64,000 nucleotides of DNA from contig CP129469.1 in NCBI GenBank assembly GCA_030583665.1, positions 496,001 through 560,000 of the forward strand, read 5' to 3'. A program made the position numbers and the translations under genes. This document shows, one piece after another, positions 40,535-53,315 of this stretch. This DNA is from Candidatus Jettenia sp. AMX2. Its GTDB lineage: Bacteria; Planctomycetota; Brocadiia; Brocadiales; Brocadiaceae. The first letter of the stretch is position 1, and each line of letters opens with the position of its first letter. The notes beneath the pieces were generated by a model. It saw only the letters and a program-made list of their open reading frames with translations. It was not told the origin of the DNA and made no database searches.

Positions 40535-40993
40535 ATGAAAGAGAAAAGGAAACCTGACAGGTCGGATTTGGATGCAATCAGGAACCAAATACTAGACTTT
40601 GCATGTGTTAAGCACGATTTTAAGCTGGAGTCAGAGGATTTTCCCTTTGATGGAAACTGGAACGGGGTGTTTCTGATAACGTTCAGGGATAATCCTGAGG
40701 AGGATAAGTTATATTGTGAAGCGCCGCTCGGTGAGCATTTTATCAGATTCGGCCTGGATCTGGAGGTAGGCGAACAGACGTGGCAGCGGGAGCGTGATAA
40801 TATTATTCGAAAGGCCTCTGGGTATGATGTGGCGGTTTACCCGTTTCTCAAAGAAGAAGAAGGTAAAAGGCACTGCCGGTTGTCTGCAAGGGCATGGATT
40901 CACAATTTCGGGCAGCGCATCTTTGGTCTGAACCTCTCAAATCTTATGGATTGCAAAAAAGCCATTCTTTTGATGCTTTCAGAAGAAATGTAG
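40535..40993 (+). CDS. Hypothetical protein
   Basis: A 152-residue, soluble, mixed alpha/beta protein with no recognised family. It carries the segments 'FDGNWNGVFLITFRDNP' (residues about 38-55) and 'RLSARAWIHNFGQRIFGLNL' (about 112-131). The start has a good ribosome site (GGAGG about 10 bases upstream). A family-3 palindrome follows directly at the stop codon, and the CO dehydrogenase cluster begins 280 bases later in the same direction. Whether the gene belongs to that cluster cannot be told. Confidence 0.55.
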   Translation: MKEKRKPDRSDLDAIRNQILDFACVKHDFKLESEDFPFDGNWNGVFLITFRDNPEEDKLYCEAPLGEHFIRFGLDLEVGEQTWQRERDNIIRKASGYDVAVYPFLKEEEGKRHCRLSARAWIHNFGQRIFGLNLSNLMDCKKAILLMLSEEM

Positions 40994-41277: not shown

Positions 41278-42054
41278 ATGAAGATAGCAGTTTCGGGTAA
41301 GGGTGGAGTCGGAAAGACTACTTTTGTTGCTACGCTGGCAAAGATTTTTTCAGAATGCGGGAAGAAGGTTATAGCAATTGATGCGGACCCCGTATCGAAT
41401 CTGGCAACAACCTTTGGAATCAGGAATATTTCAGAGATAACACCGATCAGTCAGATGAAAGATTTAATAAAGGAACGCACGGGTGCTGCACCCGGGGAAT
41501 ACGGGAAATTTTTTACCTTAAATCCTAAAGTTTCTGATCTTCCAGAGAAGTATTCGCTGGAGCAGGATGGCATAAAACTTATGGTGCTTGGGGCCATAAA
41601 GCAAGGGGGAGGAGGGTGTGCCTGTCCGGAAAGCGCCTTCCTGCGGACACTGCTCAGCCATCTGATCTTACAAAGAGACGAGGTGGTGATTGTTGATATG
41701 GAGGCTGGCGTAGAGCATCTTGGCCGTGCGACGGTAAAGGCAGTAAATGCCATGATTGTTATTGTGGAACCGGGTTCAAAGAGTATACAAACAGCCTTTC
41801 AGGTAAAAAGGCTGGCAGACGATATAGGTCTTAAATCAATTTATGCAGTGGGTAATAAGGTAGCATCTGATGAACAAAGGGCAGTAATAGAAAAAGGATT
41901 ACAGGGAATACCTTTGCTTGGGTTTATTTCATATAACAACGAGGTGCTTAATGCAGACATTGAAGGGTGCGCTGCTTTTGCAGGGAACAAGCAATTATTG
42001 GCGGAAGTCAGCCAAATAAAAGACCGGTTGGAGGAGTATATAAAAAACAAGTAA
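41278..42054 (+). CDS. cooC: CooC-type nickel-insertion ATPase
   Basis: A 258-residue MinD/ParA-like P-loop ATPase. The deviant Walker A is 'GKGGVGKTTF' (residues 7-16), with 'IAIDADPVSNLATTFG' and 'VIVDMEAGVEHLGRATV' following. A CxC metal-binding pair ('GGGGCACPESAFLR') near residue 118 is the mark of CooC, which delivers nickel to CO dehydrogenase in an ATP-dependent manner. It is the first gene of the cluster, 150 bases ahead of cooS. A second paralogue is at 50586-51377. Confidence 0.9.
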   Translation: MKIAVSGKGGVGKTTFVATLAKIFSECGKKVIAIDADPVSNLATTFGIRNISEITPISQMKDLIKERTGAAPGEYGKFFTLNPKVSDLPEKYSLEQDGIKLMVLGAIKQGGGGCACPESAFLRTLLSHLILQRDEVVIVDMEAGVEHLGRATVKAVNAMIVIVEPGSKSIQTAFQVKRLADDIGLKSIYAVGNKVASDEQRAVIEKGLQGIPLLGFISYNNEVLNADIEGCAAFAGNKQLLAEVSQIKDRLEEYIKNK

Positions 42055-42206: not shown

Positions 42207-44174
42207 ATGGAAGAAAAACAAAAAGCAATAGACGAAGTAATGCTTGATCGCATGAAAGAGCTTAAAGTAGAAACCATGTACGATAGATATGAGGCACAGC
42301 TTCCGCAATGTGGATACGGCAGTCTTGCGCTGTGTTGCCGTCATTGTAACTATGGGCCTTGTAATATTGACCCTTTTGGAAAAGGGCCGAAAAAGGGGGT
42401 TTGTGGTGCAGATGCAAATACCTTTGCTGCGAGACATTTTCTGCGTATGAGTGGTGCAGGGACTGCCTGTCATTCGGACCATGGGCGTGCGGTAGCTCAT
42501 CTCCTGGTTTCAACAGCAAGAGGGGAAGCCCCTGGCTACCGGATTAAAGATGTTGATAAACTCATGATGGTTGCCGAATGTTTTGGGGTAAAGACGAAGG
42601 ACCGCAAGATTAATGAGATTGCCGAGGAGGTTGGCGAAATGGCACTTATGGAGTTCGGGAAACCGTATGGAACGTTGCTGTTCCTTAAAAGGGCACCGGA
42701 GGCACGCCAGAAGGTATGGGAAAAAGCAGGCATTGCATCCAGGGCGATAGATCGTGAGGTTTGTGAAAGCCTTCACAGAACTGGAATCGGTGGTGACCAG
42801 GATTACCGGAATCTCACGAAGCAGGCTATGCGTGTAGCACTGGCAGACGGCTGGGGTGGCAGTATGATAGCCACAGAACTGCAGGATATCCTCTTTGGTA
42901 CGCCGAAGCCGGTTCAGGGAAGGTCAAGTATGGGTGTTCTCAAAAAAGACTACGTAAATATCATTGTTCACGGGCATGAACCGCAACTGGCTGAGGCGGT
43001 TGTTATGGCTACAAGCGATCCCGATGTTGAGAAGGCGGCAAACGCCGCAGGGGCAGAGGGTGTTGTGGTTGCAGGTCTCTGTTGTACGGCAAATGAGCTC
43101 CTTGTCAGACACGGAATTCCTATGGCCGGCCACATGACTATGCAGGAGGCCGCAATTTCTACCGGTGCGGTTGAATTGATGGTTGTAGATATTCAGTGTG
43201 TGATGCAGGCAATCGTAGAGACATCGAAGCATTTCCATACAAAGATTGTCACAACCTTGTCAAAGGCTAAAATCGCCGGCGCCGAGCATGTGGAATTTAC
43301 CGATGAGCATGGGCTTGAAGCAGCAAAGAAGATTGTCAAGATGGCTATTGAGAATTATAAGAATCGTGATAAGAACAAAGTATTTATACCTTCCGGCGCT
43401 GAACCAGAGCTTATTGCCGGCTTCAGTCACGAGACGATTAAATATATGTTGGGCGGCAGATTCCGTGCGAGTTACCGGCCCCTCAATGATAATATTATCA
43501 ACGGAAGGATTCGCGGGGTTGTGGGAATCGCAGGTTGTACAAGTCCTCGCATGAAACCTGGGGCACTATCGTATGTTAATCTTGCAAAAGAACTTATAGC
43601 CAATGATTTCCTGGTGGTTACAACAGGTTGTGCCGCCGGGCAGTGTGCCGACGGTGGTTTAATGTTACCGGAACTAAAAGATGCCTGTGGTCCTGGCCTG
43701 AAAGAAGTTTGTGAGGCTGTGGGTATGCCACCTGTTTTACACTCCGGTGCTTGTGTGGATAACAGCCGTATCCTCATTGCATGTTCAGAAATGGTGAAAG
43801 AAGGCGGCCTGGGAAATGACATCAGCGATTTACCGGTTGCCGGGGCCAGTCTGGAATGGATGAGCGAGAAAGCAATTGCTATTGGTCAATATTTGGTGGC
43901 ATCAGGTATTTATACGGTATTTGGTATGAACACGCCGGTTGCAGGTGCGCCTGATTTACAAAGGTTGTTAACAAAAGAAATGGAAGAGCTGGTAGGCGCC
44001 AGATGGGACTTTGAGAAAGACGTAACCAAGATAGGCAGGATGATGATGGATCACATTGAGAAGAAGAGAGATGCGCTTGGCATAAATGTTAGAAAGGAAA
44101 GAAAATTGTACGATATGGCTGAAAGAAGGGCGCTGGAAAGAGAATGTAAACCGGTTCCAACGGGTCATCATTAA
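42207..44174 (+). CDS. cooS: Carbon monoxide dehydrogenase catalytic subunit
   Basis: A 655-residue monofunctional-type Ni-CO dehydrogenase (AcsA/CooS). The N-terminal 'CCRHCNYGPCN' near residue 45, with the following 'GVCGADANTFAAR', binds clusters B and D. The C-cluster ligands are in 'GLCCTANELLVRHGIPMAGH' (near 295), 'GCTSPRMKP' (near 450), 'TTGCAAGQCADGG' (near 475) and 'HSGACVDNSRI' (near 515). It reduces CO2 to CO for acetyl-CoA synthesis, or the reverse, and is paired with AcsB. AGGAGG gives a strong start. Confidence 0.95.
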   Translation: MEEKQKAIDEVMLDRMKELKVETMYDRYEAQLPQCGYGSLALCCRHCNYGPCNIDPFGKGPKKGVCGADANTFAARHFLRMSGAGTACHSDHGRAVAHLLVSTARGEAPGYRIKDVDKLMMVAECFGVKTKDRKINEIAEEVGEMALMEFGKPYGTLLFLKRAPEARQKVWEKAGIASRAIDREVCESLHRTGIGGDQDYRNLTKQAMRVALADGWGGSMIATELQDILFGTPKPVQGRSSMGVLKKDYVNIIVHGHEPQLAEAVVMATSDPDVEKAANAAGAEGVVVAGLCCTANELLVRHGIPMAGHMTMQEAAISTGAVELMVVDIQCVMQAIVETSKHFHTKIVTTLSKAKIAGAEHVEFTDEHGLEAAKKIVKMAIENYKNRDKNKVFIPSGAEPELIAGFSHETIKYMLGGRFRASYRPLNDNIINGRIRGVVGIAGCTSPRMKPGALSYVNLAKELIANDFLVVTTGCAAGQCADGGLMLPELKDACGPGLKEVCEAVGMPPVLHSGACVDNSRILIACSEMVKEGGLGNDISDLPVAGASLEWMSEKAIAIGQYLVASGIYTVFGMNTPVAGAPDLQRLLTKEMEELVGARWDFEKDVTKIGRMMMDHIEKKRDALGINVRKERKLYDMAERRALERECKPVPTGHH

Positions 44175-44197: not shown

Positions 44198-46381
44198 ATG
44201 TCAAAAATCATCTGTTCCGCCGCTATACGCGGCGCGTATCAAGTTGTAGATAAGGCGGATAAGAAACTCGCTGAGGCAATTGCCCAGAAAGGGCGTGATT
44301 GCAAGGTTGAGTTTCCCAATACGGCGTATTATTTGCCCATCATTTATTCTATGACAGGCATTCCTGTAAAAACGCTGGAAGATTGTGAAAACATTATTGG
44401 CCTGGCAAGGAGCATGCTGCCTCCGCTACCTGCAGAAAATCACTGGGTACCCTATTTGGGACACACCCTGGATGCAGGGATGGCAACGCTGTTTGCAGAA
44501 GAGGTATATGAAGCCTGTAAATATTTAATAGGACCCCATCCTGTAGACGGAATATGGCTGGGAGCTGCTGATGATATTATTATGCGTGAACGCGGTATCG
44601 AATTCGTTGATGGTACAGCCCCCGGTTTTGCTGCTATTGTAGGATGTGCCCCGGATGCGGATACAGCAGTTAAAATCGCCAGGGAACTCCAGCAGAAAAA
44701 TCTCTATGTATTTATGCAATCCGATAACCTCGGTGTGTCCTTTGCGGAACAATTAGCGGAAAAAGATGTACAAATGGGATGGGATACCAGGCTTGTTCCA
44801 TTTGGAAAGGAAACCTCTGCTGCTGTGTATGCTTTAGGCTTTGCAAACAGGGCTGCACTCTCGTTTGGCAACGTGAAGCCGGGTGATTACAAGAAAAACC
44901 TTCTCTATAATAAGAATCGTATCTTCGCCTTTGTTCTTGCAATAGGTACAGCGGTTACTGATGAACAATATGCGAATGCGGCAGGTGCAATCAATTACGG
45001 CTTTCCTACGATTTCGAATATTGACATTCCTGAAATATTACCGACAGGTGTCTGTACGTATGAACATGTCGTATCAAGGGTACCGGTTGATAAGATCGTT
45101 GACAAATGTATTGAGGTCAGAGGATTAAAGATATCCGTACACAAGATTGATATTCCGGTAGCTTACGGCCCTGCTTTTGAGGGTGAGCGTATCAGAAAAG
45201 AAGAGATGCAAATTGAAATAGGCGGCCCCGGAACGCCGGCATTTGAATATGTATGTACCAAAGAGATTGACGAAGTAGAAGATGGTAAGATTCGGGTCGT
45301 CGGTCCTGACCTTGATGAAATTCCACAGGGACCTGGTGTTTCTGTTGGTATTATGGTTGAGGTGTACGGCAGGAAAATGCAGCCTGAGTTTGAGCCTATT
45401 TTTGAGCGTCAAATGCACCGGTTCCTGGGAGAGGCCCAGGGATTATTCCACATGGGTCAGAGAGACACCATACGCCACCGAATCAGTAAGGAAGCGTTTA
45501 AAGCCGGTTTCAGGCTCAAGCACATTGGCACCATCATTCATGCCAAGTTTCATGGCGAGTTTGGTGCTATCCTTGATAAAGTTCAGGTTACGTTGTATAC
45601 AAAGAAGGAAGATGTAGAAAAACTGTTGGACGATGTACGGGCTGCATATGCGGAGCGTGATGCGAGGCTGAAGGGTATGACTGATGAGTCCGTAAATGTG
45701 TTTTACAGTTGTACCTTATGTCAGAGTTTCGCTCCTACCCATATCTGTATTGTGACGCCGGAGCGTTCAGGGCTTTGTGGCTCTGTAAGCTGGTTAGACG
45801 GAAAAGCAGGTTATGAAATTAATCCAACAGGGCCGAACCAGCCAATTGAAAGAGGAAAAATAGTCAATGAAGGTCTGGGGCAATGGGAGGGAACTAATTC
45901 ATTTATTTATAATGGTTCTAACCGGTCACTTGAGAAGGTGAGTTTGTATAGTATTATGACAGACCCCATGACAAGCTGTGGGTGTTTTGAATGTATTTCT
46001 GCGATGTTACCCATGACAAACGGGATTATGGTGGTAGACAGGGATTTTACCGAGATGACTCCCTGTGGTATGAAATTTTCTACGTTAGCTGGTACGGTCG
46101 GTGGAGGTTTACAAACTCCCGGTTTTATGGGACACAGCAAGTTTTATCTGAGCAGCAAAAAATTCATATCGGCCGATGGTGGCCTTGCCCGTGTTGTATG
46201 GATGCCAAAGGCACTTAAGGAAGAGTTGCAAGAGATGCTTGCTCAGACAGCAGAAAGCCTGGGCCTCGAGGATTTTCTCAATAAAATAGCTGACGAGACC
46301 ATTGCTCAGACAGAAGAAGAAGTTCTGGCATATATGCAAAAAGTTAATCATCCTGCGCTGGTTCTGGCGCCAATGTTATAA
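44198..46381 (+). CDS. acsB: Acetyl-CoA synthase (CODH/ACS beta subunit)
   Basis: A 727-residue full-length bacterial-type ACS, including the N-terminal domain that contacts CO dehydrogenase (absent in archaea). The A-cluster ligands are visible: 'CTLCQSFAPTHIC' near residue 506, a fourth Cys in 'ERSGLCGS', and 'MTSCGCFECISAML' near 594 with the Cys-Gly-Cys pair holding the distal nickel. It joins the methyl group from the corrinoid protein with CO from CooS and CoA to make acetyl-CoA. It starts 23 bases after cooS and is co-transcribed. Confidence 0.95.
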   Translation: MSKIICSAAIRGAYQVVDKADKKLAEAIAQKGRDCKVEFPNTAYYLPIIYSMTGIPVKTLEDCENIIGLARSMLPPLPAENHWVPYLGHTLDAGMATLFAEEVYEACKYLIGPHPVDGIWLGAADDIIMRERGIEFVDGTAPGFAAIVGCAPDADTAVKIARELQQKNLYVFMQSDNLGVSFAEQLAEKDVQMGWDTRLVPFGKETSAAVYALGFANRAALSFGNVKPGDYKKNLLYNKNRIFAFVLAIGTAVTDEQYANAAGAINYGFPTISNIDIPEILPTGVCTYEHVVSRVPVDKIVDKCIEVRGLKISVHKIDIPVAYGPAFEGERIRKEEMQIEIGGPGTPAFEYVCTKEIDEVEDGKIRVVGPDLDEIPQGPGVSVGIMVEVYGRKMQPEFEPIFERQMHRFLGEAQGLFHMGQRDTIRHRISKEAFKAGFRLKHIGTIIHAKFHGEFGAILDKVQVTLYTKKEDVEKLLDDVRAAYAERDARLKGMTDESVNVFYSCTLCQSFAPTHICIVTPERSGLCGSVSWLDGKAGYEINPTGPNQPIERGKIVNEGLGQWEGTNSFIYNGSNRSLEKVSLYSIMTDPMTSCGCFECISAMLPMTNGIMVVDRDFTEMTPCGMKFSTLAGTVGGGLQTPGFMGHSKFYLSSKKFISADGGLARVVWMPKALKEELQEMLAQTAESLGLEDFLNKIADETIAQTEEEVLAYMQKVNHPALVLAPML

Positions 46382-46445: not shown

Positions 46446-47057
46446 ATGATTTTTCCAATAACATCCGTAAGTAGTAAGGACGAGGAGAGCGAAGAGAAGG
46501 AAAAGCAGCGTGGTGGCGATATTGCTTCAAAGCTGTTGAAAACCCGTACCATCATCGTTACGGATGAAGTAAATAAGAAGATGGCGCAGCAGATTATTAC
46601 ACAGCTTTTACTTCTTGAAGCCGAAAACAATGACGAGATCAAGGTGTTTATTAATTCCCCCGGAGGTGATGCCGATGCCGGTTTTGCGATTTTCGATATG
46701 ATGCGTTTTGTTAAGCCGGAAATAAAGGCTATTTGTACAGGGGTTGTAGCAAGTGCTGCCGTGATAATTCTTCTGGGGGCAAGAAAGGAAAACAGGTTTA
46801 GCCTGCCAAATGCACGTATTCTGATCCATCAGCCCTCGACGGGCATTCATGGAACTGCTGCGGATATTCAGATTGAAGCGAATGAAATCCTTAAATGTCG
46901 TGAAAAGATTAACCGGTTGATTGCTGCTGAAACCGGACAAACTTTTGAAAGGGTGGAGACAGATACCAAGAGAAATTTTTGGATGTCAGCCGAAGAGGCT
47001 CTTAAATACGGTCTGATTAGTAAAGTTATTCAAACAGGTGATGATTTGAAATCGTAA
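46446..47057 (+). CDS. ClpP-like protease with altered triad
   Basis: A 203-residue ClpP-family serine protease. ATG 46446 is preferred over TTG 46440 because GGAG is 9 bases ahead of it. The fold marks are 'FINSPGGDADAGFAIFDMM', the Ser in 'GVVASAAVIILLGA' (residue 103) and the His in 'ILIHQPSTGI' (residue 128). The spacing to the third triad position is exactly that of E. coli ClpP (Ser97, His122, Asp171), but the residue there is Asn177 ('TKRNFWMSAEEA'). Some ClpP paralogues with Asn are known to need a partner ClpP. It sits between acsB and acsC, so it may service this complex. Confidence 0.85.
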   Translation: MIFPITSVSSKDEESEEKEKQRGGDIASKLLKTRTIIVTDEVNKKMAQQIITQLLLLEAENNDEIKVFINSPGGDADAGFAIFDMMRFVKPEIKAICTGVVASAAVIILLGARKENRFSLPNARILIHQPSTGIHGTAADIQIEANEILKCREKINRLIAAETGQTFERVETDTKRNFWMSAEEALKYGLISKVIQTGDDLKS

Positions 47058-47266: not shown

Positions 47267-48607
47267 ATGGCATTAACTGGATTAGATATTTATAAACTAC
47301 TTCCCAAAACGAATTGTAAGAAATGTGGAAGACCTACATGCCTGGCATTTGCTATGCAATTGGCACAAAAAAAAGCAAGCTTGTCAGACTGTCCGGATGT
47401 AAGTGAAGAAGCGAAGAATGTGCTTGGAGCTGCTTCTGCTCCCCCAATCAAACTCGTAACTATTGGTACTGGTGATAAGAAAGTGGAGATTGGAGAGGAG
47501 AATGTATTATTCAGACATGAAGAAAAATTTTATCATCCGACCGGTGTGGCTGTTACCATTCACGATGATTTGGATGATACCGTTTTTCAGGACAGGCTGA
47601 AAAAGATTAACAGCTTGAAAATTACCCGTGTTGGTACTGAAAACGATATTGATTTAGTGGCAGTAATCAACAAGAGTGCCGGTACAGAGAAGTTTACACA
47701 AGCAGCAAAAGTGGTTAGTGGCAATTCTCATTTGAATATTATTTTAAGCAGTGCCTCAGTTGAAAATATGAAAGCAGCTTTGGAAACGTGTGCCGGGAAA
47801 AGGCCTTTAATACACGGTGCAAATTCTGAAAACTGTGAGGCTATGGCGGCATTGGCAAAGGAAAAAAACTGTCCTATGACAGTTACCGCCACAACGCTTG
47901 AAGAACTTGCCGATTTAACCGAGCGGGTAAAAAAAGCTGGTGTCGAAGAGATTGTCCTGGATGTAAGTGGCAACAATCCCAAGGAAGTGCTTCACAAACT
48001 AACAAAAGTAAGAAGGTCAGCATTAAAGAAGAATTTTCGCGCCCTTGGGTTCCCCATAATTACTTTTATTGCAGAAGATGACCCATTCATGGAAATTGCC
48101 CTTGCAAGCACCTATCTGGTTAAATATGCAGGTATTGTTGTGGTTAATAGTTGTGAGACGTGGTCAATTATGCCGCTGCTTACCGTCAGGGCGAATATAT
48201 TTACTGACCCGCAAAAACCCATTCAGGTGGAGCCAAAACTGTATGCGGTGGGAGATGTCAAAGAAGATTCTCCTGTCTTGTTTACAACGAACTTTTCGCT
48301 TACCTATTATACTGTTGAAGGTGAAGTTGAAGGAAGCCGTATCCCTGCATACATCTTATCGGTAGATACCGGCGGAACTTCTGTGTTGACGGCTTATTCC
48401 GGTGATAAACTGAATGATAAGGTTGTAGCCAAGGCAATGGAGCATGCACAAGTTGAGACAAAAGTAAAACACAGAAAACTGATTATTCCCGGACTTGTGG
48501 CAGTTATGTCAGGAAAGTTGCAGGAGACCCTTGGCTGGGAGATTCTTGTAGGACCGCGCGAAGCGTCGGGAATCCCGTCCTATTTGAAAACAGTATGGAG
48601 ACCTTAA
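47267..48607 (+). CDS. acsC: Corrinoid/iron-sulfur protein large subunit
   Basis: A 446-residue CFeSP large (gamma) subunit. The N-terminal 4Fe-4S site is 'NCKKCGRPTCLAFAMQL' with the fourth Cys in 'LSDCPD' (residues about 16-46). The middle TIM-barrel domain has 'HGANSENCEAMAALAKEKNC'. The C-terminal domain (from about residue 310) carries the cobamide site ('VDTGGTSVLTAYSGD'). With AcsD it holds the methyl-cobamide that passes the methyl group from AcsE to AcsB. It has its own leader after a terminator. Confidence 0.95.
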   Translation: MALTGLDIYKLLPKTNCKKCGRPTCLAFAMQLAQKKASLSDCPDVSEEAKNVLGAASAPPIKLVTIGTGDKKVEIGEENVLFRHEEKFYHPTGVAVTIHDDLDDTVFQDRLKKINSLKITRVGTENDIDLVAVINKSAGTEKFTQAAKVVSGNSHLNIILSSASVENMKAALETCAGKRPLIHGANSENCEAMAALAKEKNCPMTVTATTLEELADLTERVKKAGVEEIVLDVSGNNPKEVLHKLTKVRRSALKKNFRALGFPIITFIAEDDPFMEIALASTYLVKYAGIVVVNSCETWSIMPLLTVRANIFTDPQKPIQVEPKLYAVGDVKEDSPVLFTTNFSLTYYTVEGEVEGSRIPAYILSVDTGGTSVLTAYSGDKLNDKVVAKAMEHAQVETKVKHRKLIIPGLVAVMSGKLQETLGWEILVGPREASGIPSYLKTVWRP

Positions 48608-48613
48608 AGACTA

Positions 48614-50542
48614 GTGGAAAACTCACATTATAAGGTAAATTTTTTCCCGGATGAAGTTACAGTCGAGATTGAGAAAGGCATGACCATTCTTGATGCTGCT
48701 TACAAAGGGGACCTTTTTATCAATGCTTTATGCGGAGGTGATGGTACGTGCGGCAAATGCAAGGTGATCCTTAAAAGCGGGATCACTGAGAGTATGCCTA
48801 CTACGCATATTTCCCGGTCAGAGACAGAAGAAGGATATGTACTGGCTTGTGGAACAAAGGTAATGGGTGACCTGGAGGTATTTATACCTGAAGAGTCCAG
48901 GCTTGATAAGGGGCAGGTTTTAGTAAGTGAATATCCGCAGTTTTCCGGTTCCCTTGCAGCAGTTAGCCAGGGAGTAGAGCAATTTCCGAAGAATCCGTTA
49001 ACAAGGAAGATATATCTGGAATTATCTCCTCCCTGTATGGATGATAGTATGGCAGATTATGAGAGAGTTTGCCAGGATATTATGGTGAAAACCGGCATTC
49101 CCCTGGAGAAGTTGACAACAAATTTTGCGGTACTGAAACATTTGCCTGTAATTCTGAGAAATAGCAGGTGGAAGGTGACTGCGACCCTCGGATACAGGGG
49201 GTCATCTTATGAGATACTTGAAGTACAGGCGGGTGATGTAAGTGCAAATAACTACGGAGTTGCTGTAGATGTCGGTACAACCACCGTGGTAGCGCATCTG
49301 CTTAATCTCTCTCATCCGGAAACCCTTGATAGTGAAGCTACCTACAATTCACAGATTAAATACGGAGATGATTATATCCAGCGAATAATATATGCTGAGC
49401 AAAATGATGCAATGGAAATCTTACAGGAATCCCTTGCGGAAGATATTAATCATTTAATCTCCACACTGGTAAAAAGAAATAAGATAAGTATCCATGACAT
49501 CTGTGCCGTTGTTTGTGCCGGGAATACCGTAATGACCCACTTTCTTGTTGGTTTGGATCCTACCAATATCAGAAAGGAACCGTATCTTCCTGCTGCAGGT
49601 TTTATACCGCCTTTTTGTGCCCATGAGGCAGGCATAAAGATCAACAATCATGGTTTGCTTTATACATTGCCAGGTGTCGGGGCATATGTGGGGGGAGACA
49701 TTACTTCCGGTGTTTTGGCAATTGGCCTGGATAATGCCGAAGTACTATCGCTCCTTATTGATATAGGTACGAATGGCGAGATTGTGCTGGGGAATAAAGA
49801 CTGGATGGTATGTTGCTCTGCATCTGCCGGACCTTCCTTTGAGGGCAGCGGTATCTCCTGTGGAATGCGTGCAGCGAAAGGTGCGATAGAACAGATACAT
49901 ATTAAAAAGAATTTTGATGTTGATTATAAGTCTATTGGTGATGCCCCTCCTTCTGGAATATGCGGTTCTGGATTGCTGGACTGCCTGGCAAATCTTCTGA
50001 GAAGCGGTGTTATTGACAGAACAGGAAATTTTCAGAAAGGAATAGATACCGAGCGATTAAGAAAGACAGATGACGGATATGAATTTATCCTGGTTGATAA
50101 GAGCGAAACTGCGGCAAAAAAAAGAGATATTGTTATTACTCAGGCAGATATTCAGAATCTTATACGTTCCAAGGCGGCGATATATTCAGCGATTGCAACA
50201 TTAATTGAATCAATGAGTATGGATATAAATGATATTGAACAACTCTATTTAGCAGGAGGTTTTGGTAACTACCTGGATATACGAAGTGCTATTACCATCG
50301 GAATGCTGCCGGATATTATGGAATCAAAGGTCCGGTTTGTTGGAAATACTTCCGTAATTGGAGCAAAATTATCATTATTTTCCAATGACGCTTATGAGGT
50401 GGCAAAAACAATTGCATCAAGGATGACCTATTTTGATCTTATGAATAATAACAGATATATGGAAGAGTACATATCCGCAAATTTTTTACCCCATACGGAT
50501 ATTGAAAAATTCCCATCGGTAGCAGAGGAATTGAAAATATAA
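48614..50542 (+). CDS. acsV: Corrinoid activation/regeneration protein (RACo type)
   Basis: A 642-residue protein. The N-terminal [2Fe-2S] ferredoxin domain shows 'ALCGGDGTCGKCKV' and a later 'VLACGTKV' (residues about 38-80). A linker follows, then a C-terminal ASKHA-type ATP-binding domain from about 210 ('VDVGTTTVVAHLLNL', 'LLIDIGTNGEIVL', 'LYLAGGFGNYLDI'). The family reactivates the cobalt of the CFeSP by ATP-driven reduction when it falls to Co(II). It starts at GTG 48614, 6 bases after acsC. Confidence 0.9.
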   Translation: MENSHYKVNFFPDEVTVEIEKGMTILDAAYKGDLFINALCGGDGTCGKCKVILKSGITESMPTTHISRSETEEGYVLACGTKVMGDLEVFIPEESRLDKGQVLVSEYPQFSGSLAAVSQGVEQFPKNPLTRKIYLELSPPCMDDSMADYERVCQDIMVKTGIPLEKLTTNFAVLKHLPVILRNSRWKVTATLGYRGSSYEILEVQAGDVSANNYGVAVDVGTTTVVAHLLNLSHPETLDSEATYNSQIKYGDDYIQRIIYAEQNDAMEILQESLAEDINHLISTLVKRNKISIHDICAVVCAGNTVMTHFLVGLDPTNIRKEPYLPAAGFIPPFCAHEAGIKINNHGLLYTLPGVGAYVGGDITSGVLAIGLDNAEVLSLLIDIGTNGEIVLGNKDWMVCCSASAGPSFEGSGISCGMRAAKGAIEQIHIKKNFDVDYKSIGDAPPSGICGSGLLDCLANLLRSGVIDRTGNFQKGIDTERLRKTDDGYEFILVDKSETAAKKRDIVITQADIQNLIRSKAAIYSAIATLIESMSMDINDIEQLYLAGGFGNYLDIRSAITIGMLPDIMESKVRFVGNTSVIGAKLSLFSNDAYEVAKTIASRMTYFDLMNNNRYMEEYISANFLPHTDIEKFPSVAEELKI

Positions 50543-50585: not shown

Positions 50586-51377
50586 ATGGCATTTAACATT
50601 GCAGTGGCCGGTAAGGGCGGTACGGGGAAATCAACCCTTTCGGCCCTCATAATCCGATATATTACAGAAGAACTTGGTAAGCCGGTGTCTGCTGTTGATG
50701 CGGATCCCAATGCTTCTTTAGGCACACTCCTCGGATTACAGATAAAAAATACCGTTGCTGATATCCGTGAAGATATTGTAGAGAAGAAGGTTGATTTTTC
50801 AGGGATGTCGAAAGACAGGTATATTGAATATGCGATCGAAGAATCTATCATTGAAACAACTAAGTTTGACCTCTTAACTATGGGCAGGCCTGAAGGTCCT
50901 AAGTGTTACTGTTATGTAAATAACCTCCTGCGTAAATATTTGGATAAGGTTGGGACAACGTACCCATTTATCGTAACAGATAACGAAGCAGGCATGGAAC
51001 ATCTCTCACGAAGGACAACCAATAACGTAGATCTTTTGATAATTGTAAGTGAACCTACAATTGTAGGCGCATTAACGATGGAAAGGATTCTTAAATTAGC
51101 TGAATCGCTTCCGGTTACAATAAGGCAGAAGGCATGTGTACTAAACAGGGTCCCGGTGAATGGTATTCATGAGAATCTTCAGCAGAAATTGTATAGTATA
51201 GGGATAGAGGTGTCTGCGATCTTTCCGTTTAATACCGAGATATATGATACTGCTGCATGCGGAGCTTCTGTATTTGAAATCTCCCGGGAGAATGAGGTAT
51301 ATGGAAAGCTTGGTAAATTCTTACAAAAATATCTGCCGGCAGGCATGTTTGACAGAAATACAATCAGTAACAGATGA
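50586..51377 (+). CDS. cooC: Second CooC-type ATPase
   Basis: A 263-residue P-loop ATPase with deviant Walker A 'GKGGTGKSTLS' (residues 8-18), 'VSAVDADPNASLGTLLG' and the metal-binding CxC 'PKCYCYVNNLLR' near residue 114. It has the same architecture as the first CooC, but the sequence is well diverged, so this is not a recent duplication. It lies between acsV and acsD. It may serve the nickel of AcsB (the AcsF role), while the first CooC serves CooS; this division is an inference. Confidence 0.85.
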   Translation: MAFNIAVAGKGGTGKSTLSALIIRYITEELGKPVSAVDADPNASLGTLLGLQIKNTVADIREDIVEKKVDFSGMSKDRYIEYAIEESIIETTKFDLLTMGRPEGPKCYCYVNNLLRKYLDKVGTTYPFIVTDNEAGMEHLSRRTTNNVDLLIIVSEPTIVGALTMERILKLAESLPVTIRQKACVLNRVPVNGIHENLQQKLYSIGIEVSAIFPFNTEIYDTAACGASVFEISRENEVYGKLGKFLQKYLPAGMFDRNTISNR

Positions 51378-51525
51378 TAAAACAAAAAACATTGTCACTC
51401 AGGTTTAATACGGAAGGTCTGGCTGTTTACGGCAGGCGATCAACAACCGTAAAATGATAACCTGTAATATTACAAATTTTTTTGATCAGGATGTTGTTAA
51501 TTATCGACCGGTAAGTAGGAGACAA

Positions 51526-52488
51526 ATGATGGAAATACCAAATGTTGCGGATAAGTGGACAGGTGGTGTCTTCGAGGTGACCATTGGTGCCACAAAGGAT
51601 AAAGGAGGCAGTCGGCAAAAAACAATTACTATTGGCGGCTCAAAATGTGTTCCTTTCATTGATTTTGAAGGAAATCCGGGTCATAGACCGGTAATTGCCA
51701 TGGATGTTTATGATACTGCCCCTGATGACTGGAACGAGACGTTAGCCGGCCCTTTTGCTGATGTGATTAATGATCCGGCACTTTGGGCAAAAAAATGCGT
51801 TGAACAGTACGGAGCAGATTTGATTTGCCTTAAACTGGACGGTATCCACCCTGACAAGGGTAACAGAAGTGCGGAAGATGCAGTGAAAACGGTAAAGTCT
51901 GTACTTGCAACGGTAGGCGTTCCATTGATTATCTGGGGATGTGAACACGATGAAAAGGATAACGAGGTAATGCCTAAAGTAAGCCAGGCTGCCAAAGGAG
52001 AGAACTGTCTGATGGGTATTGTATCTCAGGATAATTATAAGGTGCTTACAGCCACATGTCTTGCAGATGGGCATGGGATTATTACGATGGCTCCTGTAGA
52101 TATTAATATTGGGAAACAGGTGAATATCCTTGTATCTGAAATGGATTTTCCGCTCAACAGGATAGTTATGTTCCAATCAACCGGTGCATTAGGGTATGGT
52201 CTGGAATATTCCTACTCCATTCAGGAACGTGAGCGGCTGGCGGCTCTCATGGGTGACAGGATGATGTCTATGCCGGTAATCTGTGATGTCGGACATGAAG
52301 CATGGAGATCGAAAGAGGCAAAATCAGACGATAACGATGCGCCACAATGGGGTCACAGAGATCAAAGAGGGCCGTTATGGGAAACTATTACTGCCGCTAG
52401 TCTTCTGCAATCGGGCGTTGACATTATCCGTATGAACCATCCCCGGGCAGTTGCGACCGTAAAAGATTGTATTAACCGTTTATATTAG
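51526..52488 (+). CDS. acsD: Corrinoid/iron-sulfur protein small subunit
   Basis: About 320 residues from the ATG at 51526. This start is chosen because TAGGAGAC stands 5-8 bases ahead and because known AcsD proteins begin at this point ('EIPNVADKWTGGVFEVTIGA'); the frame is open upstream to 51454. A TIM-barrel body follows, with 'YGADLICLKLDGIHPDKGN' and 'QSTGALGYGLEYSYSIQERE'. It has no Fe-S cluster and forms the heterodimer with AcsC that binds the cobamide. It follows cooC2 and precedes acsE by 41 bases. Confidence 0.9.
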   Translation: MMEIPNVADKWTGGVFEVTIGATKDKGGSRQKTITIGGSKCVPFIDFEGNPGHRPVIAMDVYDTAPDDWNETLAGPFADVINDPALWAKKCVEQYGADLICLKLDGIHPDKGNRSAEDAVKTVKSVLATVGVPLIIWGCEHDEKDNEVMPKVSQAAKGENCLMGIVSQDNYKVLTATCLADGHGIITMAPVDINIGKQVNILVSEMDFPLNRIVMFQSTGALGYGLEYSYSIQERERLAALMGDRMMSMPVICDVGHEAWRSKEAKSDDNDAPQWGHRDQRGPLWETITAASLLQSGVDIIRMNHPRAVATVKDCINRLY

Positions 52489-52529: not shown

Positions 52530-53315
52530 ATGATTTCCATAGCTGAGCGCATCAACGGTATGTTTAAAGACGTACGTGAGGCGATAAAGAATAAAGACCC
52601 GAAGGCTGTGAAGGAACTTGCCATTAAGCAAACTGAAGCCGGCGCAAGTTTCCTGGATGTGAATGTTGGCACTGCGGCTGCTGATCCGGCAGAAGCAATG
52701 AAGTGGCTTATTGAAGTTATCCAGGATACGGTAAAGACTCCCATTGCGATTGATAGTCAAAAGTATGATGTAGTGAAGGCTGGTTTATCAGTGATTAAAA
52801 ACGAGGTGCTTATCAATTCATCAAAAGGTGACCCTGAAGAGCTGGACCGGTATCTGTCTCTTGCAAAAGATTATAATGCATCATTGATATGCCTTACTAT
52901 GGACAAGTGTGGTATTCCTCAGGATGTTGAGCGGCGTATGGAGATTGCTATGAAGATAGTGGAAAAGGCAATGGAACACGATTTTGAACTTTCAAAGATT
53001 TATATCGATCCTGTGCTTTTCCCCATTAACGTTGATCAAAAGCAGCCGGCGCTTATGTTTGATATCTTTAATCAGATCAGGATGATCTCTGACCCTCCTC
53101 CACACAGGAACGTAGGGCTGAGCAACTTTTCCCAGGGAACAAAGGAAAAGAGACTTTTGGCCAGAACGTTTCTGACTATGGGCATTTCCTATGGGCTGGA
53201 TGCTGCGGTGATGGATGTCCTTGATAAGGATCTCATGGATGCGGCTCTTACTGCGGAAATTATTATGAACCAGCATGTTTATAGTGACTCTTACCTTACC
53301 GCGTGCAGAAAATAA
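52530..53315 (+). CDS. acsE: Methyltetrahydrofolate:corrinoid/iron-sulfur protein methyltransferase
   Basis: A 261-residue pterin-binding TIM barrel. It has 'IAERINGMFKDVREAI' at the N-terminus, 'GASFLDVNVGTAAADP' near residue 38, the pterin site Asp/Asn in 'PIAIDSQKYDVVKAG' near 72, and 'VGLSNFSQGT', whose Asn matches the residue that helps protonate the N5 of the folate in MeTr. It moves the methyl group of methyl-tetrahydrofolate to the Co(I) corrinoid of AcsCD. Last gene of the cluster; a hairpin follows. Confidence 0.95.
   Translation: MISIAERINGMFKDVREAIKNKDPKAVKELAIKQTEAGASFLDVNVGTAAADPAEAMKWLIEVIQDTVKTPIAIDSQKYDVVKAGLSVIKNEVLINSSKGDPEELDRYLSLAKDYNASLICLTMDKCGIPQDVERRMEIAMKIVEKAMEHDFELSKIYIDPVLFPINVDQKQPALMFDIFNQIRMISDPPPHRNVGLSNFSQGTKEKRLLARTFLTMGISYGLDAAVMDVLDKDLMDAALTAEIIMNQHVYSDSYLTACRK

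What the first reader, a model, noticed from the sequence alone, without database searches (positions are those of the whole stretch)
46446..47057. ClpP paralogue with Asp-to-Asn in the triad inside the acetyl-CoA synthase cluster
Ser103 and His128 are kept and the spacing to residue 177 equals that of E. coli ClpP, but residue 177 is Asn instead of Asp. A protease-like gene between acsB and acsC is not a standard part of Wood-Ljungdahl clusters. It could be a specialised chaperone or regulated protease for the oxygen-sensitive complex, perhaps active only with another ClpP.
Basis: partly seen in the sequence, partly recalled or inferred. Interest (0 to 1): 0.7.

Follow-up and report, generated by a model that had tools for sequence, protein, structure and literature searches.

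The report
Altered protease subunit in anammox carbon-fixation operon
Anammox bacteria keep a protease subunit with a changed active site inside the gene cluster for their carbon-fixing enzyme; it is probably a partner subunit that works only together with the cell's ordinary ClpP protease, which is suggestive but untested.

Summary
The window comes from an anammox bacterium (Brocadiales). The gene at 46446-47057 encodes a ClpP with Ser103 and His128 kept and Asn at the triad Asp position. It is not a local mutation or a chance insertion. In Brocadiales it follows acsB directly in 52 of 54 genomes that have it (one of the other two is a split contig and the other shows the acsB tail). Asn177 is present in 47 of 47 readable acs-linked loci. 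Twenty non-Brocadiales planctomycete acs stretches show no ClpP. The closest solved protein is Listeria ClpP1, which also has Asn and is described as active only in a complex with ClpP2 (PMC5361862, passages). In two other planctomycete genomes an Asn-ClpP sits in tandem with a canonical Asp-ClpP and clpX. Best reading: a partner subunit for a mixed ClpP, co-produced with acetyl-CoA synthase and probably serving its turnover. New here: the fixed coupling to a CO2-fixation operon, plus a basic residue (47 of 47) at the ring-contact position where canonical ClpP is acidic. Heteromer formation, activity and substrate are untested.

The parts
46446..47057 (+). clpP-acs: Asn-triad ClpP paralogue, 203 aa
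46752..46754 (+). codon of Ser103 (nucleophile position)
   Evidence: aligned to E. coli Ser97; Ser in 48 of 48 acs-linked loci; codon read
46827..46829 (+). codon of His128 (triad His)
   Evidence: His in 48 of 48 acs-linked loci; codon read
46968..46970 (+). codon of Lys175, at the position of the acidic ring-ring contact residue (S. aureus Asp170, E. coli Glu169)
   Evidence: Lys 38 or Arg 9 in 47 of 47 readable acs-linked loci; role of Asp170 from PMC6110781
46974..46976 (+). codon of Asn177 (triad Asp position)
   Evidence: Asn in 47 of 47 readable acs-linked loci; codons AAT 36, AAC 11
44198..46381 (+). acsB, acetyl-CoA synthase
   Evidence: Pfam CdhC, ACS_CODH_B_C
47267..48607 (+). acsC, corrinoid iron-sulfur protein large subunit
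   Evidence: Pfam CdhD and FeS
42207..44174 (+). acsA, CO dehydrogenase
   Evidence: Pfam Prismane/CODH
41278..42054 (+). CooC-like ATPase 1
   Evidence: Pfam CbiA; name by position and recall
48614..50542 (+). AcsV-like corrinoid activator
   Evidence: Pfam RACo domains; NCBIfam AcsV 661.6 bits, below its cut-off of 800
50586..51377 (+). CooC-like ATPase 2
   Evidence: Pfam CbiA; name by position and recall
51454..52488 (+). acsD, corrinoid iron-sulfur protein small subunit
   Evidence: Pfam CdhD
52530..53315 (+). acsE, methyltransferase
   Evidence: Pfam Pterin_bind

Best explanation
The gene encodes an Asn-triad ClpP subunit that works like Listeria ClpP1. On its own it would tend to form inactive rings: it has Asn in place of the triad Asp, a basic residue where the acidic ring-contact residue belongs, and no N-terminal chaperone-binding motif. 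Stacked on a ring of the cell's canonical ClpP (G000:C1:1433126) it would be switched into an active shape, and ClpX or ClpC would dock on the canonical side. Because the gene is locked into the acs operon, the mixed protease would be made in proportion to acetyl-CoA synthase/CODH and would alter the rate or selectivity with which those Ni-Fe-S and corrinoid proteins, or damaged copies of them, are degraded. Shown: gene, residues, conservation, synteny, fold family, presence of canonical ClpP and ClpX. Inferred: co-transcription, mixed rings, activation, substrate.
For: acsB-clpP adjacency on one strand in 52 of 54 Brocadiales genomes holding the gene; of 59 genomes 53 have both genes, 5 neither, 1 clpP alone. 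Asn177 and Arg176 in 47 of 47, Ser103 and His128 in 48 of 48, although Asn and Asp codons are one base apart (AAT 36, AAC 11). dN/dS 0.03-0.15 in 11 computable of 12 pairs. Best solved relative by sequence is Listeria ClpP1 4jcq; by fold, the Listeria ClpP1/2 heterocomplex 4ryf. Published passages: LmClpP1 has Asn172 for Asp, lacks the N-terminal chaperone motif, is inactive alone and active with ClpP2. Asn-ClpP directly upstream of a canonical Asp-ClpP and clpX in both genomes of one planctomycete order. Own genome has canonical clpP and clpX. Lys or Arg at 175 in 47 of 47, against Asp in 20 of 20 canonical Brocadiales ClpPs read.
Against: No direct evidence of a heteromer, of activity or of substrate. 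The tree puts the Asn of the Brocadiales clade and of the Listeria clade on separate branches (2 changes), so the Listeria analogy may be convergence; a single origin is not rejected either (p-AU 0.42). Asn relatives in L082, L119 and L120 have no acs genes nearby (for L119 and L120; for L082), so the Asn feature does not need acs. Lys175 facing a canonical ring's Arg would also be unfavourable, so the charge argument favours mixed rings only partly. In some Brocadiales the acsB-clpP gap is long (up to 815 bases).
Confidence: 0.5

Rival explanations
1. No functional link to acetyl-CoA synthase: a general ClpP1-like partner of canonical ClpP landed in the acs operon in an ancestor and stayed by descent.
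For: Asn relatives without acs nearby exist in the same class and phylum (L119, L120; L082). Other acs gene orders in Brocadiales are also stable.
Against: The gene stays in one place (52 of 54) between lineages whose acsB differs by up to 29%. Of 59 genomes none has acsB without it, and the five that lack it also lack acsB, though most of those assemblies are incomplete.
Confidence: 0.25
2. A working homo-oligomeric ClpP: Asn is tolerated (water or a neighbouring residue replaces Asp) and the protein is an ordinary protease of its own.
For: Ser, His and the SPGG motif are invariant in 48 of 48; high-confidence ClpP fold (pLDDT 86.1).
Against: Listeria ClpP1 with the same change is reported as an inactive heptamer, with Asn to Asp raising activity. 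The acidic ring-contact residue is replaced by Lys or Arg in 47 of 47. The canonical N-terminal motif is missing.
Confidence: 0.12
3. A non-proteolytic scaffold, chaperone or assembly factor for ACS/CODH with a ClpP fold.
For: Triad Asp lost; operon position among maturation genes (CooC-like ATPases, AcsV-like gene).
Against: Catalytic Ser, His and the oxyanion-side SPGG are all invariant, which a pure scaffold would not need.
Confidence: 0.13

Closest known systems
Listeria monocytogenes ClpP1 (PDB 4jcq, 4jcr, 4ryf)
   Same: Asn at the triad Asp, Ser and His kept, N-terminal chaperone motif missing, about 50% identity; best hit by sequence and by fold
   Different: Listeria ClpP1 keeps Asp before the Arg (DTDRN); the window protein has Lys (DTKRN). 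The window gene is inside an acs operon. Separate branch in the tree, single origin not excluded
Azospirillum plasmid-borne ClpP (L156, L157)
   Same: Asn at the triad position; groups with Listeria ClpP1
   Different: Neighbours in L157 are unrelated genes; no acs genes
Planctomycete tandem clpP(Asn)-clpP(Asp)-clpX (L121, L180)
   Same: Asn-ClpP paired with a canonical partner
   Different: Partner and unfoldase are adjacent there; in the window's genome they are elsewhere
Pseudomonas aeruginosa ClpP1/ClpP2 heterocomplex with ClpX (PDB 9ndj)
   Same: Two-paralogue ClpP; among the best sequence and fold hits
   Different: Only titles and alignment scores seen here; triad of that ClpP2 not compared

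Membership tests
ClpP family (PF00574) | Match above Pfam's curated cut-off over the whole domain | tested here: met
   234.9 bits, residues 20-197
Canonical active ClpP | Ser-His-Asp triad | tested here: not met
   Ser103, His128, Asn177
Canonical active ClpP | Curated match to TIGR00493 (clpP equivalog) | tested here: not met
   208.7 bits, cut-off 308.6. Weak test: the genome's own canonical ClpP, given as its 178-residue core, also scores below it (283.2)
Canonical active ClpP | Acidic and Arg residues of the ring-ring contact (S. aureus Asp170, Arg171) | tested here: not met
   Lys175 and Arg176; the acid is lost, the Arg kept (role from PMC6110781)
Listeria ClpP1-type Asn-triad ClpP | Asn in place of triad Asp with Ser and His kept | tested here: met
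Listeria ClpP1-type Asn-triad ClpP | Missing N-terminal chaperone-binding motif | tested here: met
   Sequence comparison only: the window protein lacks the LVPMVIEQTSRGER-like stretch that canonical ClpPs have
Listeria ClpP1-type Asn-triad ClpP | One clade with Listeria ClpP1 to the exclusion of Asp-ClpPs | tested here: inconclusive
   Two separate Asn clades in the best tree; holding them together is not rejected, p-AU 0.42
Listeria ClpP1-type Asn-triad ClpP | Inactive alone, active as mixed tetradecamer with a canonical ClpP | not testable with these tools
   Needs protein biochemistry
NCBIfam PRK12553 (ClpP subfamily) | Score above the curated cut-off of 228 | tested here: met
   256.4 bits; Listeria ClpP1 fragment 277.5
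NCBIfam PRK14512 (ClpP equivalog) | Score above the curated cut-off of 251 | tested here: not met
   238.8 bits; spirochaete L083 scores 314.3, Listeria ClpP1 fragment 219.1
Standard part of acs (Wood-Ljungdahl) clusters | Present in acs clusters outside Brocadiales | tested here: not met
   No ClpP match in 20 of 20 stretches around acsB from non-Brocadiales planctomycetes, 9 of which hold acsB followed directly by acsC; one exception, L081, has acsB-clpP-acsC. Other phyla not tested

The most novel reading that the evidence does not exclude
Anammox bacteria run a mixed ClpP protease dedicated to their CO2-fixing enzyme: an operon-encoded, by itself inactive Asn-triad ring with an altered ring interface stacks on canonical ClpP and targets damaged or apo acetyl-CoA synthase/CODH/corrinoid proteins. 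This would be protein quality control, or on-off control of carbon fixation, built into the pathway's own operon.
Probability: 0.35. Interest if true: 0.75.

Novelty: new variant of a known kind. Interest (0 to 1): 0.57.

Why it matters
Mixed ClpP proteases with a handicapped subunit are known in a few bacteria, but their natural targets are mostly unclear (general knowledge). A copy fixed for the length of an order inside one metabolic operon points to a small set of candidate substrates and makes the question directly testable. It would also be a first handle on how anammox bacteria look after oxygen- and probably nitrite/NO-sensitive Ni-Fe-S enzymes (the nitrite/NO point is general knowledge, not tested here).

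Tried and rejected
Rejected: pseudogene or sequencing error (Asn in 47 of 47 readable loci, dN/dS 0.03-0.15). Rejected: chance insertion in this genome (52 of 54 adjacency). Rejected: the only ClpP of the genome (canonical copy found). Rejected: Asn evolved for the acs role (Asn relatives without acs). Not decided: one or two origins of Asn. The promoter and terminator scan was not informative (30 promoter-like sites against 27.2 expected); it listed no plus-strand terminator-like site between acsB and acsC.

Literature: ten full-text searches in the held library. Searches combining ClpP or Clp protease or protease with anammox or Wood-Ljungdahl/acetyl-CoA synthase terms, and Kuenenia locus tags near acsB, gave no paper that I saw linking a ClpP to the acs cluster; most hits were seen as listings only. 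The library lacks most subscription papers, including the 2013 PNAS paper on LmClpP1, so an unseen report is possible. In some searches the tag of clpP itself was guessed.

Sampling limits: of 47 non-Brocadiales genomes with a P0001 match at E <= 1e-55, 16 were fetched and one more later (G079). Of 23 non-Brocadiales acsB genomes, 20 were fetched; G066, G089 and G369 were left out. In one search only 80 of 264 confirmed loci were kept by the tool. L098 could not be read across the triad, and L085 ends before it. The tree used 68 chosen rows and one search; L180 is not in it. The same genomes recur in the loci, so their counts are not independent.

Full report
What is there. The ORF at 46446-47057 (+) encodes a 203-residue ClpP (Pfam CLP_protease 234.9 bits). 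The ATG is preceded by GGAG. It sits between acsB and acsC in a run of same-strand genes: CooC-like ATPase, acsA, acsB, clpP, acsC, acsV-like gene, a second CooC-like ATPase, acsD, acsE. Ser103, His128 and Asn177 align with E. coli Ser97, His122 and Asp171, and the codons were read directly.

Where it comes from. Named relatives of the protein are anammox planctomycetes: Jettenia, Loosdrechtia, Brocadia, Kuenenia, Scalindua and others.

Not a chance insertion. Around the 30 best copies, acsB lies on one side and acsC on the other in 29; the thirtieth is at a contig start and lacks acsB there. Of 59 genomes searched for both proteins, 53 have both, 5 have neither and 1 has clpP alone; clpP follows acsB on the same strand in 52 of the 54 that have it, with a median gap of 99 bases and a range of 30-815. 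The two exceptions are G011, where the two genes are on different contigs, and G058, where clpP is at a contig start and a tail of acsB is visible (L060). Among the 80 loci kept, 48 hold acs genes.

Not general to acs clusters. In a sample of 392 planctomycete genomes, 57 have acsB; 23 of these lie outside Brocadiales, and 20 were fetched. None of the 20 stretches has a ClpP match; 9 of them show acsB followed directly by acsC, one has acsD between, and 10 have no acsC in the stretch. One non-typical locus, L081, has acsB-clpP-acsC, yet its acsB falls outside the Brocadiales acsB set in a quick tree, so the linkage may be older than the order or may have been transferred. Clusters of other phyla were not examined.

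The Asn is fixed. Asn177 is found in 47 of 47 readable acs-linked loci, and Ser103, His128 and the SPGG motif in 48 of 48; in the 30 best copies Asn is found in 30 of 30. The codon is AAT in 36 and AAC in 11, one base from Asp, yet never reversed. Nei-Gojobori dN/dS is 0.03-0.15 in 11 of 12 pairs; one pair was saturated.

A second change next to it. Position 175 (S. aureus Asp170, E. coli Glu169) is Lys in 38 and Arg in 9 of 47, while Arg176 is kept in 47 of 47. In S. aureus ClpP, Arg171 and Asp170 form a salt bridge across the ring-ring contact (PMC6110781, one passage). Canonical Brocadiales ClpPs keep Asp and Arg there in 20 of 20 read (the window's own and 19 stretches from 18 genomes). 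So the acs-linked protein should be poor at stacking on itself and might do better, though not perfectly, on a canonical ring. This is inference.

Relatives. The 29 readable of 30 spirochaete relatives have Asp, as do L107 and all 13 of the planctomycete paralogues L122-L134. Four non-acs relatives have Asn: L082, L119, L120, L121; Azospirillum L156 and L157 have it too. In a 68-row tree built without column 177, the whole second-ClpP group is separated from canonical ClpP with support 100/100; the Asn rows fall in two clades, Brocadiales and L081 with L082, L119 and L120 (96/86), and Listeria ClpP1 with Azospirillum and L121 (100/99), needing 2 changes. Holding all 37 Asn rows together is not rejected (p-AU 0.42). 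L119, L120 and L082 have no acs genes in their stretches, so the Asn came before, or apart from, the recruitment into the acs operon.

Link to mixed proteases. By sequence the best solved relative is Listeria ClpP1 (4jcq, E 2.2e-59), which reads DTDRN where the window reads DTKRN. A model of the window protein (pLDDT 86.1, pTM 0.80, first 19 residues unreliable) matches best the Listeria ClpP1/2 heterocomplex (Foldseek E 4.4e-24; Z 28.7, rmsd 2.6, 179 aligned); the next rows are tied within 1 Z, so the fold alone does not single it out. Passages of PMC5361862 say that LmClpP1 forms predominantly inactive heptamers, lacks the N-terminal chaperone-binding motif, has Asn for Asp172, is active only when complexed with LmClpP2, and gains activity and tetradecamers on Asn to Asp. 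In both genomes found in the order of G104, an Asn-ClpP lies between tig and a canonical Asp-ClpP followed by clpX (L121; L180). That is independent genomic support for an Asn-ClpP working with a canonical ClpP and ClpX. The window's genome has the canonical clpP next to tig and a clpX-like gene (L117, 56% identity to E. coli ClpX), besides ClpB/ClpC-like and HslU-like genes (names by recall).

Co-expression. No plus-strand terminator-like site was listed between acsB and acsC, but the scan is weak. A published metatranscriptome of a Brocadia-dominated reactor lists one assembled contig of 10,448 nt that carries both acsA and acsB (PMC4913261, Table 1 rows and passages seen). The two genes take about 4.2 kb, so the contig runs well into neighbours and probably over clpP; in the passages I saw the paper does not say so.

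Interpretation. Most likely this is a partner subunit for a mixed ClpP, made with acetyl-CoA synthase and probably acting on it or its companions. The partner-subunit part is better supported than the ACS-specific part. The kind (Asn-triad ClpP) is known from Listeria; the lock-in to a CO2-fixation operon across an order and the basic ring-contact residue are what differ. In the ten searches of the held library I saw no report linking them (searches are the relevant ones), with the gap that most subscription papers are not held.

Noticed in passing
L121:2238-3439 and L180:1408-2675: tig - clpP(Asn) - clpP(Asp) - clpX in two planctomycete genomes (G104, G079): an Asn-triad ClpP placed directly before canonical ClpP and ClpX.
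   Followed up: partly
window 40535-40993: 152-aa gene upstream of the first CooC-like ATPase, without any Pfam or NCBIfam match, 74-82% identical in 5 loci of close relatives (L035, L037-L040).
   Followed up: partly
L156, L157: Azospirillum plasmids carry an Asn-triad ClpP that groups with Listeria ClpP1.
   Followed up: no
G008:C2:220328-222505 and G055:C20:17228-19402: Second acsB copies in two Brocadiales genomes; the second copy in G008 has no clpP match on its contig. Could be an assembly duplicate.
   Followed up: no
L167 (G030:C22): A third ClpP in G030, canonical and next to clpX, 57% identical to the window genome's canonical ClpP; possibly foreign or contaminating DNA.
   Followed up: no
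G012:C1:1655864-1658040: acsB split by stop codons or a frameshift in an otherwise complete genome.
   Followed up: no
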